A stretch of 64,000 bases of DNA from Cyanobacterium sp. Dongsha4 (GTDB taxonomy: Bacteria; Cyanobacteriota; Cyanobacteriia; Cyanobacteriales; Cyanobacteriaceae). The translations under genes and the position numbers were made by a program. Location: assembly GCF_036345015.1 (NCBI RefSeq), contig NZ_CP084098.1, positions 3,485,326 to 3,549,325 on the forward strand, given 5' to 3'. How positions within the stretch are numbered: the first letter of the stretch is position 1; each line of letters starts with the position of its first letter. Positions 1,479 to 46,719 of the stretch are shown in pieces. The notes beneath the pieces are model-generated. The model saw only the letters and a list, made by a program, of their open reading frames with translations, was not told where the DNA came from and made no database searches.

Positions 1479-2309
1479 ATGACTGATTATTGGTCTAGTT
1501 TTAATTCTTTGGGCAAAATAATTATTTTCCTGACAATTTGGGCGGTTATCTGGTTTCCCATCGCATTACCTTTAATTAAGCTAATCAAATGGACAAATAC
1601 CGCTCCAAACGAAAATACAAGCAAGAAACTAACTCTTATTTTCTCCCTTTATCTACTAATACCCTTTCTAATTCTAGGATTAACTAAGATAGAGGGTATT
1701 ACTCTGGAACAAATAGGGATAATTTTCCAAGTTAGATTATTTAAGTCTATCTTATTCGGATATGGTTTGAGTATTTTTACTTTGTTCTTAATTTATTTTT
1801 GGGAATGGGGTTTAAATTGGATTACATGGAAAAGTATTATAAATCAACCTCAAAGCCCCAGTTTATTGACAACATTGCCTTTACTGGGGTTTGTTAGTAT
1901 TTTTATTGCCAGTATCGAGGAATTAGTTTTTAGGGGTATATTTGTTAATTTCTTGAAGGAAGATTTTTCGTTGTGGTTAACAGCAATTATTTCTAGTTTG
2001 ATTTTTGCTTTATTACATTTAATTTGGGAACAAAAAAATACCATTCCTCAATTGCCCGGTTTGTTTATTTTGGGTTTGGTGTTGTTTTATGCTCGGATTG
2101 TGGATAATAGCTTATTGGGTTTAGCTATTGGTTTACATGGTGGTTGGGTTTTATGTTTAGCTGCGATCGATTCTTTTAATTTGATAGATTATAATAGTTC
2201 ACTACCTAGTTGGATTGTCGGAAATAAGAATCAGCCTTTGGGTAGTATTGCTGGTTTGTTACTTGTGTTATTTGCCTTGTTGTTAATATATTTGGTCAAT
2301 GTTATCTAA
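1479..2309 (+). CDS. CPBP family intramembrane glutamic endopeptidase
   Basis: A polytopic membrane protein of about 276 aa. The CPBP (Rce1/ABI) protease signature is present: EELVFRG in a transmembrane context, then FALLHLIW about 40 residues later, and a conserved HGGWV near the C-terminus. The Glu-Glu pair, the Arg and the His residues form the metal-independent active site in this family. Members cleave prenylated or other membrane substrates or act as immunity-like proteins; the substrate cannot be inferred here. A longer reading from TTG at 1464 is possible, but the ATG at 1479 starts naturally just before the first membrane segment. A tRNA gene follows on the same strand. Confidence 0.85.
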   Translation: MTDYWSSFNSLGKIIIFLTIWAVIWFPIALPLIKLIKWTNTAPNENTSKKLTLIFSLYLLIPFLILGLTKIEGITLEQIGIIFQVRLFKSILFGYGLSIFTLFLIYFWEWGLNWITWKSIINQPQSPSLLTTLPLLGFVSIFIASIEELVFRGIFVNFLKEDFSLWLTAIISSLIFALLHLIWEQKNTIPQLPGLFILGLVLFYARIVDNSLLGLAIGLHGGWVLCLAAIDSFNLIDYNSSLPSWIVGNKNQPLGSIAGLLLVLFALLLIYLVNVI

Positions 2310-2363
2310 ATTTCTCTGTATAATTTTTATAATTTTATAGTTAAACTAAGGATATGAACTAAG

Positions 2364-2528
2364 GGGGAAGTAGCTCAATGGTAGAGCGGCGTTTTACTTT
2401 CCGCAGTATGCACAGAAAGTTCCTTAATTCTGGCTTCTAACCAATTTGTACTTTCCGCAGTATGCAAAGCAAGTTCCTTATTTCGGCTCATAACCCGTAG
2501 GTTGCAGGTTCGATTCCTGCCTTCCCCA
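2364..2528 (+). tRNA. tRNA-Met(CAT), elongator type, interrupted by a 93-nt insert in the anticodon stem
   Basis: The outer parts form a perfect cloverleaf: acceptor GGGGAAG (2364-2370) with CTTCCCC (2521-2527) and discriminator A2528; D-arm GCTC/GAGC (2373-2387); T-arm GCAGG/CCTGC (2504-2520) with loop TTCGATT. The anticodon loop CTCATAA is at 2487-2493 with CAT at 2489-2491. The 3' stem strand CCCGT (2494-2498) pairs with GCG (2389-2391) joined to GG (2485-2486), so 93 nt (2392-2484) sit between positions 29 and 30. Removing them leaves a standard 72-nt tRNA. The insert contains a direct repeat of about 54 nt. It is too short for a group I or II intron and lies in the stem rather than the loop, so the gene is either processed in an unknown way or is a disrupted pseudogene. 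Confidence 0.8.
2396..2497 (+). repeat. Two tandem units (period about 54 nt) inside the tRNA-Met gene
   Basis: Unit A starts at 2396 and unit B at 2450. Both begin ACTTTCCGCAGTATGCA and contain AGTTCCTTA. Each ends in an anticodon-arm-like sequence: GGCTTCTAACC in A (2432-2442) and GGCTCATAACC in B (2485-2495). Unit B therefore contains the real tRNA anticodon arm, and unit A carries a diverged copy whose loop (CTTCTAA, 2434-2440) would present TCT. The simplest history is an insertion into the stem followed by tandem duplication of insert plus arm. A third diverged copy of the core lies just after the tRNA (2539-2561). Confidence 0.75.
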
Positions 2529-2538
2529 GCAAAAGGGG

Positions 2539-2587
2539 GCAAAGGAAATTCCTTAATATGGCGTAAGCCATTAGTCTTAAGAACTAA
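2539..2587 (+). repeat. Diverged third copy of the tRNA-insert repeat plus two small hairpins
   Basis: Positions 2539-2561 align without gaps to 2464-2486 of the tRNA insert with about 18 of 23 identical bases (GCAAAG, TTCCTTA and terminal GG shared). The core contains AAGGAA-A-TTCCTT, a near-perfect inverted repeat. It is followed by hairpins ATGGC-GTAA-GCCAT (2558-2571) and TTAGT...ACTAA (2571-2587). The hairpins could help 3' end formation of the tRNA transcript, but no T-run follows directly. Confidence 0.5.
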
Positions 2588-2628
2588 TATTATCTCTCGC
2601 CCTCTTTAAAATCAAAGGACATTGAAAA

Positions 2629-4506
2629 ATGAATAAAGCAACGTTAAGATTATTTAGTGCGATCGAAGTTGATAATAAACAAAAAAAAGACTTACCTGAA
2701 TCTTTATTGGTAAGAACAATTCAAAATGGTTATATTCTCGACTCTACCATTCAACCAACAGAAGAATTACTTAATACAATTGAAAGTATTGTCGGTATCT
2801 CAGGCATTAAAGCCAATTCTGCCTTTCATAAATCATGGCAAATCATTCAAGACTCTTCGATAGAATCCCTCGTTACGCAACAAATTATTCACTACATTAC
2901 AACCTATGGCTTTGAAAGTCTTGGTATTTATCGGGAAGATGCAGTATATATTCCCAAAGAAATCTTAGAATTGCCTAATATCACTGATGATATTCCCCTT
3001 GTCGTGATAAAAGCCATGACAGCAGAGGAAATACTAAACAGTATTGTTAAGTTAGCTGACGGTATCGCCTTAGCCCAAGAAACCCTCGATGATATTATGG
3101 AGATTGTCAAAGGACATAATTATGAGAAAAGTTTTGTCGAAAAAATAGGTAACAGAGAACTAAAAGCCCTACTATTGGATTTTTATGGTATTGTACCATC
3201 TGAACCTGTAGAATTTTTGCGTCATCTTATCAGTAAATTAACAGATGAATCTTTACTAATCAAAAATAAATATCTCATCGATAAAATTAAGCAATCTAAC
3301 GGCAAATTTTTAGATACTTTACTAAAAGACGCACCAGAGGATTTAGCCTCTATTTTCTTTCGCTTCAAGCCTTTATTCTTGGCAATGAAATCAATTTCTC
3401 ATAATAAAACCTATTTCAATCAGTTAAGAAAAAAAGCAAAAAAACAACATAAGCCCTTACCTGAAGATTATCTTAATAGCATTACCAGCCAAATAAAATA
3501 TGAAAAGTTAAATTTAGAAACCCTAGCCCAAAAACTGAAAAAAGCAACCATTTTTCGGAAAATCCGTCTTGCTTATGCCTTAAAATATCGCCTTGATATT
3601 AATGATTCTATTATTTATAGAGTGAGAAATGGGCGTGGTTGGGCTACAGAATTTGATTATGAATGGTGGTATGTAGTTAAAGATAAAACTCAACAAGCCT
3701 TAGAAATAGTAATCAACTCTATTGTGGAAGATGTTAAACGAAATGTTGAGGGTAAAACAATTTATATTCCCCGTAATATTCATTACGCTTTACCAGCAAC
3801 AGAGAAACAATTTACAGGATATTTTCCTACAGGCACTTATGTTGTCACTCAAGAGGATATGATTGTCGGTATCCATTGGACTAATACGAAAAAAAATAGA
3901 GTAGATTTAGATTTATCCGTCATTGGTGAGTCGGGTAAAATCGGTTGGGATGCGGATTATTACTCAGAAGAAAAAGAGGTTTTATTTTCAGGTGATATGA
4001 CAGATGCACGTGCACCTGATGGGGCTTCAGAGCTTTTTTATTTGAAACAAGCCTCTCAAGAGACAAGAATTTTAATGGTAAATTATTTTAATTTTGTTAA
4101 GGGGGATAAAGTTGAAGCTAAGATTTTAGTGGCACAGGAAAAACCAGATAATTTTAGGCTAAACTATATGGTAGATGTTAATAAAATTATTGCTTCTGCT
4201 AATATTACTATTACTAAGATACAAAATATTTTGGGCATTATAGTTAATATAAATAAAGAAAATAGAGTTTATTTCGCCAATATAAGTATTGGCAATTCTG
4301 TCACTTCTGGTAATTATCAACAGTCCCAACAAGCAAGAAATTATCTAGTTACAAAATTGGTTAATTCCCTAGAATTAAGAACAGTTTTAACTATGGCAGG
4401 AGCAAAAATTATTGATGAAATACCCGAAGACAAAGAGGAAGAATATATCAATCTTTCTCCAGAAGCATTGGATAAAACAACAATCATTAATTTAATTAGA
4501 GGTTGA
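2629..4506 (+). CDS. Unrecognised 625-aa protein with a TerD-like C-terminal region
   Basis: I do not recognise the full-length protein. Residues about 1-390 are charged, helix-rich and without obvious motifs. Residues about 396-540 resemble the TerD/TerE stress-protein fold: a GYFPTGTYV segment, then RVDLDLSVIG, KIGWDADYYS, EVLFSGDMTDARAPDGASE, and a strand ending in VNYFNF. In TerD proteins the DxD and downstream Asp residues bind calcium, and such domains occur in tellurite- and phage-stress proteins. There is no signal peptide or membrane segment, so it is probably cytoplasmic. It is a single gene directly after the interrupted tRNA-Met gene, with AAAGGA about 11 nt before its ATG. The function is open; the TerD relation rests on motif resemblance only. 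Confidence 0.75.
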   Translation: MNKATLRLFSAIEVDNKQKKDLPESLLVRTIQNGYILDSTIQPTEELLNTIESIVGISGIKANSAFHKSWQIIQDSSIESLVTQQIIHYITTYGFESLGIYREDAVYIPKEILELPNITDDIPLVVIKAMTAEEILNSIVKLADGIALAQETLDDIMEIVKGHNYEKSFVEKIGNRELKALLLDFYGIVPSEPVEFLRHLISKLTDESLLIKNKYLIDKIKQSNGKFLDTLLKDAPEDLASIFFRFKPLFLAMKSISHNKTYFNQLRKKAKKQHKPLPEDYLNSITSQIKYEKLNLETLAQKLKKATIFRKIRLAYALKYRLDINDSIIYRVRNGRGWATEFDYEWWYVVKDKTQQALEIVINSIVEDVKRNVEGKTIYIPRNIHYALPATEKQFTGYFPTGTYVVTQEDMIVGIHWTNTKKNRVDLDLSVIGESGKIGWDADYYSEEKEVLFSGDMTDARAPDGASELFYLKQASQETRILMVNYFNFVKGDKVEAKILVAQEKPDNFRLNYMVDVNKIIASANITITKIQNILGIIVNINKENRVYFANISIGNSVTSGNYQQSQQARNYLVTKLVNSLELRTVLTMAGAKIIDEIPEDKEEEYINLSPEALDKTTIINLIRG

Positions 4507-4806
4507 TGAGAAGGATAAAAAAGTATTGAAAAATAACAATTTTTGATAGGTTTAGCGGTTTGATTTTTTGAATATTAACTCTGCCGTCACTCATATTAAA
4601 AACAATAAAATCTATTTATTAAAGGTTTTTGTCAAAATTTATTAACTTTAACTCTGTTCTCGACCGAAGGGAGTGCATGAGAGCAGGGAACTCCCCGAAC
4701 TTCGAACTTAGGTAGGTATAAGGTATAATGGTTAACGGCAAAATTGTAAAAATCCCTTCATCTCTCATAAATTCAGTAAAGTAAAGACAACTAGCAAATA
4801 TCTCTC
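4507..4806. promoter_or_regulatory. Intergenic region with probable ylqF promoter
   Basis: These 300 bases hold no gene I can support. A consensus -10 hexamer TATAAT is at 4724-4729, with a weak -35-like TTCGAA 17 bases upstream (4701-4706), about 80 nt before the ylqF start. An imperfect inverted repeat, GGGAGT...ACTCCC, lies around 4668-4695 without a following T-run. Confidence 0.45.
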
Positions 4807-6310: not shown

Positions 6311-8350
6311 TCAAAAATGAAAGGTAGCAGATAAAAAAGGTCCATTGAAACTTTCTTTGAAACCAAATTTATTATTTCCGCTTCCCCAAGAATAATCGAT
6401 TTCGTAAAAGCGATAACCTAATTGTAGAGAGGTATTGTAACCTACCCACCAATCCATACCCCCCAGAAGATTCCAACTCATATCTGTTTCCCCTGCTAAC
6501 CCAAATCCCGAAGCATCACCTCTTAACCATAAAGCGATGCGATCGCTCAATTGTAGTCCCATCTTAGCACCTAACATTGGTTCAAACCAAGTGCGAGTTT
6601 GGCCATAGTTGTTTTGAAAACTACCGTTAAAGTTGACTAAACTGCTAGTAGCCACCACATTAATAGTTTGCTCAATATTAATGCTAATGTTATTTAATCT
6701 AACTCCTGCTATGGGTTGAAACCACATAAGAGGATAATTTCTTCCCGATGGTTTATCTGGTAAACGGTTATTAGGAATATCACCGAAGTGATAACTTAAG
6801 GCAAAATCATAAATACCTTGTTGAAAATTGAGATTCGTTTGACTGGTAACATCAAGATTTTGAGGAATGCGATTTTCTAAAAAGTCCTCTGTTTTCTGAA
6901 TTTTTGCTAATTCTTCATCCACTAAGGTTTTAGCTGACTGGATTTCCCTTTCTAGTTGTTGTAATTCATCTGTATCTTTGATTTCTCTTTCCTGTTTAAC
7001 TCGTTGTAAACCTTCCTCTAAAATGTTGCGGGTTTCGATTAATTCTTGTTTAATTTCTGGAATAGTGGAAAGAATACCAATATCAGATATTTTTTCATTT
7101 AATGCTTGTAAATCTTGAATTTCTGGAAAATCTCGTACATTTAAAGCTAATAATTCCCTAAAACCTTCTACCCTTAACTTTAAGTCTTGTAAATCTTGTA
7201 AGTTGATGTCACCAATACGAGAATCAGAGAATCTAGCTAAATCATTTTTGATGAGGGCAATTTTGGCATCAATATCTTTAATTCTTTGCAAATCTTCTGC
7301 TGTAGCAATCCTTAACTTATCTATTCCAAGGTTTAAGCGTTGGATAACTTCTTCTTCTTGCCTCACTTTTTGAATAGTATTGCCCAGAGTATCAATGGTT
7401 TTAGTTAAATCGACTTTGATACGGGAGATAGTAGATAAACCATTAACCTCTGTAATAGTTTGGCTTAATTGTTTTAAATTCACAATTTCGGGAGAGTCTT
7501 GAGGATTCAAGGCTAATAACTCATTCAAACTGTCTGTTAATGATTTGACTTTTTCCAAATTTTCTATGTTAAACTCTCCTGTACGAGAATTGCTAAAATC
7601 TGTCAATTCAATCTTAATTTCGCTTATTTTAGCGTCTATAGCCTCAATTCTATCTAAATCTTGAGTAAGGGTATTTTTTAAATCGTCAATTTGTTGATCC
7701 AACTGTTGCACTATTTCTGATTCTTTTAATTGTGCATCTTGTTTTGCCGTTTCAATTTTGCGATCGAGATTATTGGCTAATTCAGTTACTCTAGTATTAG
7801 TAGCCTGACTCATTAAGTAATTGACGGCATTTAAAGCAGAAGGAGTGCGAGTTGTTTGTTTTTGTAAATTGGCAACATCCCCCAAATTAACATAATAACC
7901 GTCAAAAATTACGCCAAATCTTCCCTTCCATGCCTCAAAACGGGCACTAGCAGTAAAATTTAAGGCATCTAACATTTCTCCTAAGCTAAGGTGATAATCA
8001 ACGCTTCTACCCCTAGCAGTGGCTGTACCATAAGTATTAATAGGAACAGTTACATAGGGTTGAAATTGAAAACGCCATTTATTGAGGTCTGGTATTACAT
8101 TAGAGTTTTCTTCAATTTTCTCTTGATTTTCAGAGGCAAAATAAGAAGTATTTTCTTTAATTTTATCATCAAAAAAGATATTAACTCTTGAATTTTTATT
8201 ACTAACAAATAAATCATTATTTATGCTTAAATCTTCTGCACAATTACAGCTTGATTCATCATCAAAAATAGTATTTGCTGAAGCTAAAGAAGTAGAAAAG
8301 CTAGATAATAAAAAGATTATGTAAAATAATTGATGTTGGTATGATGACAT
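6311..8350 (-). CDS. Outer-membrane beta-barrel protein with a large duplicated coiled-coil insert
   Basis: A 679-aa exported protein. Residues 1-25 form a signal peptide ending near SLASA. Residues about 90-165 show alternating aromatic strands typical of an outer-membrane barrel (WRFQFQPYVTVPI, RFEAWKGRFGVIFDGYYV). Residues about 165-500 are a long charged coiled coil. Residues about 500-679 return to strands and end in a terminal Phe (GPFLSATFHF), as expected for BamA-dependent insertion. Inside the coiled coil, residues about 231-340 and 353-461 are a clear duplication (DLDRIEAIDAKISEIK versus DLQRIKDIDAKIALIK; offset 122). I cannot assign a function. It is transcribed alone, convergent with nadD. 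Confidence 0.85.
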   Translation of the reverse strand: MSSYQHQLFYIIFLLSSFSTSLASANTIFDDESSCNCAEDLSINNDLFVSNKNSRVNIFFDDKIKENTSYFASENQEKIEENSNVIPDLNKWRFQFQPYVTVPINTYGTATARGRSVDYHLSLGEMLDALNFTASARFEAWKGRFGVIFDGYYVNLGDVANLQKQTTRTPSALNAVNYLMSQATNTRVTELANNLDRKIETAKQDAQLKESEIVQQLDQQIDDLKNTLTQDLDRIEAIDAKISEIKIELTDFSNSRTGEFNIENLEKVKSLTDSLNELLALNPQDSPEIVNLKQLSQTITEVNGLSTISRIKVDLTKTIDTLGNTIQKVRQEEEVIQRLNLGIDKLRIATAEDLQRIKDIDAKIALIKNDLARFSDSRIGDINLQDLQDLKLRVEGFRELLALNVRDFPEIQDLQALNEKISDIGILSTIPEIKQELIETRNILEEGLQRVKQEREIKDTDELQQLEREIQSAKTLVDEELAKIQKTEDFLENRIPQNLDVTSQTNLNFQQGIYDFALSYHFGDIPNNRLPDKPSGRNYPLMWFQPIAGVRLNNISINIEQTINVVATSSLVNFNGSFQNNYGQTRTWFEPMLGAKMGLQLSDRIALWLRGDASGFGLAGETDMSWNLLGGMDWWVGYNTSLQLGYRFYEIDYSWGSGNNKFGFKESFNGPFLSATFHF

Positions 8351-11210: not shown

Positions 11211-11277
11211 TTATCAAGCAACTTTGAAGAACATGGGTTATTAGACTCGTACCTATGTCAAAGGGTTTGTTAGAGAG

Positions 11278-11345
11278 AAGCCGTGTGAGTGCGAAAGTCT
11301 CATGCACGGTTTTGAAGACGAGTATGAGAGGTGACTCTCATGCTT
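11278..11345 (+). ncRNA. Group II intron domains V and VI
   Basis: Domain V is a long hairpin with lower stem AAGCCGTG/CACGGTTTT, containing the AGC triad at 11279-11281 and a GAAA tetraloop region near 11292-11296. Domain VI follows as a seven-base-pair hairpin closed by GTGA (11324-11341). These are the catalytic core and branch-site helix of the ribozyme. Confidence 0.85.
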
Positions 11346-11353
11346 AGTTTAAT

Positions 11354-46338: not shown

Positions 46339-46719
46339 TAAATAGGTGTTGCTGATTTTCGATATGGTTTCTCCTGAATGATAGGTTTGAAGGAATAGGC
46401 AAGGGGCAAAGATAAATAGTTTATAATTAACCTCAGTTTGGTTTAAGAATATCCGATAAGGTTAGATGTCACCTGAGTTCGGAGTTCGGAGTTCGGAGTT
46501 CGGAGTTAAAAGTAATAATTATTGACAAAAAAGCTGAATAAATTGATTTTACGTTAGTTCAGGTTAAGGCAATTTTATCGTTATTTCTAAGAAGCTATAA
46601 GGTTTTCTGACTGCGAGTTGGTTTCAGCTTTCAGCTTATCCAAAACTCAGGTTATGATTAATAACTTCTAACTCCTAACTTGTTTCTCCCTAATACCCCA
46701 ACACCCTTCTCTGATATTA
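46339..46719. other. Spacer after dnaX with an IS982-ended mini-element
   Basis: About 380 bases containing the 223-bp element described at 46430-46652. The rest is AT-rich DNA with GGGCAAAG-like short repeats and no gene that I can support. Confidence 0.6.
46430..46652. mobile_element. IS982-ended mini-element (MITE) carrying a fragment of the other MITE family
   Basis: The ends are ACCTCAGTTTGGTTTAAG (46430-46447) and, inward from the right, ACCTGAGTTTTGGATAAG (46652-46635). These match the IS982 copy at 23839-24802. The flanks TATAATTA (46422-46429) and TATGATTA (46653-46660) differ in one base and may be an old 8-bp duplication. The interior is not transposase: about 46473-46545 is a copy of the MITE segment (GGAGTTC heptamers, then AAAAGTAATAATTATTGAC). 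So one element carries another's fragment. Confidence 0.75.

What the first reader, a model, noticed from the sequence alone, without database searches (positions are those of the whole stretch)
2364..2528. Elongator tRNA-Met(CAT) gene split by a 93-nt insert between anticodon-stem positions 29 and 30
Seen in the sequence: every arm of a standard tRNA pairs perfectly only if 2392-2484 is left out, joining GCG to GG and restoring a five-pair anticodon stem. The insert has no group I or group II features and is far shorter than known bacterial tRNA introns, which sit in the anticodon loop. Inference: if this is the only elongator tRNA-Met gene, the organism must remove the insert by an undescribed route, or tolerate an enlarged arm; if another intact gene exists, this is a recently broken copy. 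Position 29/30 is a known intron site in archaeal tRNAs but not in bacteria.
Basis: partly seen in the sequence, partly recalled or inferred. Interest (0 to 1): 0.78.

Follow-up and report, generated by a model that had tools for sequence, protein, structure and literature searches.

The report
Phage-linked RNA motif inside tRNA genes
A tRNA-like gene in a cyanobacterium is interrupted by two copies of a previously unnamed RNA motif that, in dozens of mostly large phages, lies next to one uncharacterised protein gene and interrupts other tRNA genes at the same spots, which points to an undescribed RNA-protein system that may process or imitate tRNAs.

Summary
In detail: 2364-2528 is a tRNA (Rfam 50.9 bits) whose anticodon stem is split 29|30 by 93 nt. 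It is not a recently broken tRNA-Met. The complete genome has all three ordinary CAU tRNAs, and the interrupted copy, insert included, is conserved in three genomes of a sister genus with the 625-aa gene directly downstream (2629-4506); flanking genes differ.

The insert is two copies of an RNA motif: helix, AHA/C internal loop, 6-bp helix ending U-A, then UCCU. A third copy lies between tRNA and start codon. Scanning 2.9 million viral contigs with the motif found 40 loci; 30 encode a homologue of the 625-aa protein beside the motif, and 4 more have it elsewhere on the contig. Both helices covary strongly. About 30 distinct phage tRNAs carry the motif, mostly at 29|30 or 33|34; at 29|30 removal restores a canonical anticodon arm in 11 of 12. 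Other copies enclose permuted or partial tRNAs.

No Rfam, Pfam, PHROGs or PADLOC family covers it; the protein is not a TROVE/Ro60 homologue by profile comparison. I read it as an undescribed phage-derived RNP system. Whether the insert is spliced out (about 40%) or kept in a tRNA mimic is open.

The parts
2364..2391 (+). 5' part of the tRNA: acceptor strand GGGGAAG, D arm, position 26 and anticodon-stem positions 27-29 (GCG)
   Evidence: RF00005 match; alignment of four genomes
2392..2484 (+). 93-nt insert at 29|30, conserved in a sister genus; holds two copies of the motif
2396..2424 (+). motif copy 1, hairpin form: ACUUUC-C-GCA[GUA]UGC-ACA-GAAAGU-UCCU
   Evidence: motif scan; folds alone at -5.8 kcal/mol, z -2.4
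2450..2478 (+). motif copy 2, hairpin form: ACUUUC-C-GCA[GUA]UGC-AAA-GCAAGU-UCCU; can alternatively pair with copy 1 (fully complementary in L046)
   Evidence: weak fold on its own
2485..2528 (+). 3' part of the tRNA: GG (30-31), loop CUCAUAA, CCCGU, variable loop, T arm, acceptor strand, discriminator A
   Evidence: RF00005 match
2535..2604 (+). motif copy 3, open form: GGGGGC-AAA-GGAAAU-UCCU [38-nt payload with two hairpins] AUCUCU-C-GCCCUC, ending about 25 nt before the start codon
   Evidence: fold of 2533-2612 z -3.0; P2 fully paired in the three relatives
2629..4506 (+). 625-aa protein gene: N-terminal mostly helical part and C-terminal TerD-like part; partner of the motif
   Evidence: AlphaFold2 pLDDT 88, pTM 0.86; BFVD matches to phage proteins, one named tellurium resistant like
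2319..4542 (+). whole cassette: the block shared by four genomes whose flanks differ; absent at both flanks in the same-genus genome G001

Best explanation
The locus is a compact cassette of a phage-derived RNA-protein system. The 625-aa protein recognises a short RNA motif (P1 helix, AHA/C internal loop, 6-bp P2 helix ending U-A, UCCU). A motif copy directly in front of its start codon probably lets it limit its own translation. In trans, the protein acts on tRNA-like RNAs carrying the motif in the anticodon arm, as the tRNA upstream of it does. SHOWN: the motif, its covariation, its association with the gene in cis and on the same contigs, its recurrence at 29|30 and 33|34 of tRNAs with a canonical anticodon arm after removal, conservation of the cassette. 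INFERRED: binding, autoregulation, and the fate of the insert. For the fate I slightly favour excision, with the protein cutting or presenting the RNA and a ligase such as the host RtcB sealing it (about 40%), over a stable unspliced tRNA mimic (about 40%).
For: A motif scan of 2.9 million viral contigs gives 40 loci; 30 encode the protein beside the motif and four more (L071, L078, L090, L097) elsewhere on the contig. 27 of 33 gene copies have a unit ending within 40 nt of the start codon, next to the Shine-Dalgarno region. Covariation: 71 of 94 strand-1 sites near the gene have a complementary strand 2 within 120 nt versus 0.55 in shuffles; outer P1 pairs, not used for selection, pair in 130 of 142 versus 74.6 after swapping; covariation score 0.767 versus 0.258 shuffled. 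About 30 distinct phage tRNAs hold the motif; 11 of the 12 assigned to 29|30 regain 5/5 stem pairs, U33 and A37. Large contigs with motif-bearing tRNAs also encode the protein far away (19 of 34 records, including 411-, 424- and 416-kb ones), which suggests action in trans. S-CRM01 and L085 carry permuted tRNAs inside a unit. RtcB is present in the genome.
Against: No binding or RNA data. No nuclease or ligase domain was recognised in the protein and no solved fold matches. Most motif units are not in tRNAs. Intact tRNAs with the same anticodon lie near the interrupted ones (e.g. Glu-UUC in L071), so the interrupted ones need not decode. Some rebuilt anticodons are odd (AUC, AUU with A34) or lack U33. 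Linker lengths vary (3' side 3-9 nt), and no insert-free orthologue of the Glu/Gly group was found. Junctions were partly chosen to give the best arm.
Confidence: 0.6

Rival explanations
1. tRNA-mimic RNP without splicing (works like Ro60 and YrlA Y RNA): the protein holds the motif stems and the tRNA-like part recruits tRNA enzymes or decoys an anticodon-recognising factor; the insert is never removed.
For: Payloads include permuted tRNAs with a capped acceptor, T-armless D plus anticodon arms and T arms, the kind of tRNA mimicry described for YrlA (PMC8394870); near-identical bodies with anticodons UUC, CUC, UCC, AUC are odd for charged tRNAs; intact isoacceptors present.
Against: Does not by itself explain why 30-31/39-40 pairing, U33 and A37 are kept across the insert in 11 of 12 cases; no TROVE homology.
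Confidence: 0.4
2. Only a cis-regulatory leader: tRNA fold and motif copies form a 5'-UTR switch for the 625-aa gene, and the tRNA similarity is a relic.
For: Unit ends within 40 nt of the start codon in 27 of 33 loci; the whole leader is conserved with the gene.
Against: Motif-bearing tRNAs lie far from the gene in jumbo phages that encode it.
Confidence: 0.13
3. Recently broken, decaying tRNA-Met copy.
For: Three intact CAU tRNAs exist.
Against: Same insert, stems and motif conserved in another genus and recurrent in phages.
Confidence: 0.02
4. Group I or II intron remnant, or assembly error.
For: Bacterial tRNA introns known so far are group I (PMC4090602).
Against: No Rfam intron match here; four independent genomes; a different defined structure.
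Confidence: 0.01

Closest known systems
Ro60/Rsr with YrlA Y RNAs
   Same: A dedicated protein encoded next to structured ncRNAs; a conserved bulged stem with variable payload that can mimic tRNA; TROVE proteins are also reported in some jumbo phages (PMC7824862)
   Different: Protein shows no TROVE profile match (hhalign probability 0.5%; no Pfam hit); motif sequence and tandem units differ; motif also sits inside otherwise complete tRNAs; no Rfam Y RNA match
Archaeal and algal bulge-helix-bulge tRNA introns, split and permuted tRNAs
   Same: Small helix-and-internal-loop motif; inserts at 29/30 and other sites; permuted tRNAs; RtcB-type ligase available
   Different: Phage and bacterial hosts; motif is a 3-nt/1-nt internal loop plus UCCU, not 3-nt bulges around a 4-bp helix; linked protein is not recognisable as a splicing endonuclease; excision unproven
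Group I introns in cyanobacterial tRNAs
   Same: Insertion in the anticodon arm of a cyanobacterial tRNA
   Different: 93 nt, no catalytic core, stem position 29/30
Type III toxin-antitoxin RNA repeats (from memory)
   Same: Tandem structured RNA repeats directly before a protein gene
   Different: Protein about 625 aa; units carry different payloads and occur in distant tRNAs
TerD-like proteins and MXAN_6230/SCO0854 RING family (NF041916)
   Same: C-terminal stretch matches NF041916 in 15 of 30 members; BFVD hits include proteins named tellurium-resistance-like
   Different: Only a short stretch matches, far below cut-off (30 versus 600 bits)

Membership tests
Functional tRNA gene | Cloverleaf with 7-bp acceptor, D, T and 5-bp anticodon arms after removing the insert | tested here: met
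Functional tRNA gene | Contiguous or demonstrably spliced anticodon arm; charged product | not testable with these tools
   No RNA data
Group I / group II tRNA intron | Conserved catalytic core | tested here: not met
   No Rfam intron match at 2300-2640 even at E 10
Bulge-helix-bulge tRNA intron | 3-nt bulge, 4-bp helix, 3-nt bulge at the exon junctions | tested here: not met
   Motif is a 3-nt/1-nt internal loop between two helices, with linkers of several nt to the presumed junction
Bulge-helix-bulge tRNA intron | Excision by a splicing endonuclease and ligation | not testable with these tools
   RtcB present; endonuclease not searched for separately
Ro60 / Y RNA | TROVE-domain protein | tested here: not met
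   hhalign probability 0.5%; no Pfam TROVE hit in 30 members; PF05731 not found in the genome
Ro60 / Y RNA | ncRNA with paired ends forming the binding stem, variable payload | tested here: inconclusive
   Similar layout, other motif; binding untested
Known Rfam family | Match at or above gathering score | tested here: not met
   Only tRNA and, in L064, tmRNA matched in the motif-bearing loci scanned

The most novel reading that the evidence does not exclude
Jumbo phages and some bacteria carry protein-dependent introns in tRNA anticodon arms (29|30, 33|34), defined by a new RNA motif and removed with the help of a new protein family that also autoregulates through the motif; permuted tRNAs in units mature by circularisation. 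It would be the first non-self-splicing tRNA intron system in bacteria and phages.
Probability: 0.35. Interest if true: 0.95.

Novelty: categorically new. Interest (0 to 1): 0.85.

Why it matters
Bacterial tRNA introns are described as self-splicing group I introns (PMC4090602). A recurrent RNA motif that interrupts tRNAs at fixed places and tracks with one protein family across many phages is either a new tRNA-splicing route or a new class of tRNA-mimicking RNPs. Both bear on why large phages carry so many tRNAs and how they deal with host tRNA-targeting defences, and both are directly testable in a cultured phage (S-CRM01) and a cyanobacterium. Standard annotation misses or mislabels these tRNAs.

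Tried and rejected
(1) Broken tRNA: rejected, conserved in four genomes. (2) Group I/II intron: no Rfam support. (3) Riboswitch, tmRNA or other Rfam RNA: no match above threshold. (4) TROVE/Ro60 homology, suspected from local look-alikes: not supported (foldseek 82, 111). (5) A strict rule that the 3' junction lies 6 nt after UCCU: true for many, but 3-9 nt in others. (6) That interrupted tRNAs supply anticodons otherwise missing in the phage: not supported, intact isoacceptors present. (7) Insert-free orthologues of the Glu/Gly tRNAs: none found; the one hit is a generic Met-type arm. (8) Payloads all being anticodon hairpins: no, many short payloads are not. (9) More motif units elsewhere in the host genome: none with the pattern used. 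(10) Neighbouring phage genes: no consistent partner. (11) Plasmids: no homologue. (12) An early notebook entry says at least 33 of the 40 loci encode the protein beside the motif; the correct count is 30, plus 4 elsewhere on the contig.

Full report
CHECK. Rfam's tRNA model matches 2364-2528 at 50.9 bits with the anticodon arm interrupted. Without 2392-2484 the RNA folds as a complete cloverleaf. The genome (4.32 Mb, 100% complete) holds 43 further tRNA matches, among them an elongator tRNA-Met (L026), an initiator (L027) and an Ile2-type CAU tRNA (L042), so this gene is not needed as the sole tRNA-Met.

CONSERVATION. Among 60 relatives the full locus occurs in three genomes of one sister genus at 84-87% identity. 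The block runs from about 45 nt before the tRNA, through the insert and a second structured RNA, into a 625-aa gene, and the flanking genes differ. In a same-genus genome the two flanks are about 93-95% identical but lie apart, and the cassette is absent from both places. Acceptor and anticodon stems stay paired by G-U/G-C exchange. This is a mobile or patchily kept cassette, not a decaying tRNA.

MOTIF. The insert contains a 39-nt sequence twice. Comparison with leaders of distant homologues (a Desulfobacteraceae MAG contig, cyanophages S-CRM01 and S-CBWM1, gut phage Phass-1) showed one shared element: 5'-NNGGC-AHA-6 nt-UCCU ... 6 nt-C-GCCNN-3', in which both helices change sequence but keep pairing. 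It occurs in open form, with a payload between the strands, and in hairpin form, as twice in this insert. Scanning IMG/VR with it alone returned 40 loci. The protein family is encoded beside the motif in 30 and elsewhere on the contig in four more; the other six are contigs of 6-291 kb that may be fragments. Near the gene, 71 of 94 strand-1 sites have a matching strand 2 versus 0.55 expected; outer P1 pairs not used in selection pair in 130 of 142 versus 74.6; covariation score 0.767 versus 0.258. The selection required P2 and inner P1 pairing, so the unselected outer pairs and the shuffles are the fair measure.

PLACE. In 27 of 33 gene copies the last unit ends within 40 nt of the start codon, as expected of an autoregulatory site.

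tRNAs. Phage tRNAs of 110-117 nt carry the hairpin form in the anticodon arm. About 30 distinct ones were compared. Twelve fit 29|30, the position in the window, and 11 of these regain five pairs, U33 and A37, with pairs formed between nucleotides on opposite sides of the insert and anticodons UUC, CUC, UCC, UAU, UUU, AUC and AUU. About eleven fit 33|34 (e.g. UUG, UCG, UAG, CCG, GGG); the rest are ambiguous. Other units enclose permuted tRNAs (S-CRM01 L063:2617; L085:2421), T-armless D plus anticodon arms (L079:275, L083, L090) or a complete tRNA (L071:3605). Jumbo-phage contigs with such tRNAs encode the protein at a distance, arguing for action in trans.

PROTEIN. No Pfam, PHROGs or PADLOC family fits; NCBIfam NF041916 matches a short C-terminal stretch in 15 of 30 members. 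AlphaFold2 gives a confident model, helical N-terminal and beta-rich C-terminal. Foldseek finds no solved match but several phage proteins, one named tellurium-resistance-like, at E 1e-14 to 1e-19. Conserved residues concentrate in the N-terminal half, including a QxxHYxTTYG stretch. TROVE homology was tested and not met.

MECHANISM. Shown: the motif, covariation, association in cis and across contigs, recurrence in tRNA anticodon arms. Inferred: the protein binds the motif; binding near the start codon regulates translation; the tRNA insert is either excised, with a ligase such as RtcB (present), or kept in a tRNA mimic. Preserved pairing and loop identity across the insert favour excision; intact isoacceptors, A34 anticodons, varying linkers and tRNA fragments as payloads favour mimicry. 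I put both near 40%.

NOVELTY. Literature searches in the open-access library found neither motif nor protein; most subscription journals and preprints were not searchable, so a prior description cannot be ruled out.

Noticed in passing
window 11276-11353: Rfam group II catalytic intron match (47.6 bits) elsewhere in the window, unrelated to the finding.
   Followed up: no
window 2295-4702 and 46350-46550: The cassette sits at a rearrangement breakpoint relative to same-genus genome G001: its two flanks lie apart there, one next to sequence matching window 46.5 kb.
   Followed up: partly
window 4546-4703: Sequence just after the 625-aa gene belongs to a dispersed repeat with many copies in G001.
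   Followed up: no
L064:6006-6450: Phage Phass-1 has six motif units in tandem directly before its tmRNA (6479-6917), about 1.3 kb after the protein gene rather than in front of it.
   Followed up: no
L062:4741-4743 and L091:12582-13421: Homologous genes are interrupted: an in-frame stop in the Desulfobacteraceae contig and an approximately 840-nt gap in L091.
   Followed up: no
L079:275-342, L083:12283(-), L090:859, L097:2138, L071:4745: T-armless tRNA-like payloads (D arm plus anticodon arm with anticodons GGU, GCU, GUU) enclosed by the motif.
   Followed up: partly
G000:C1:3556646-3557737: RtcB ligase gene about 7 kb beyond the window's end; linkage to the cassette not tested.
   Followed up: no
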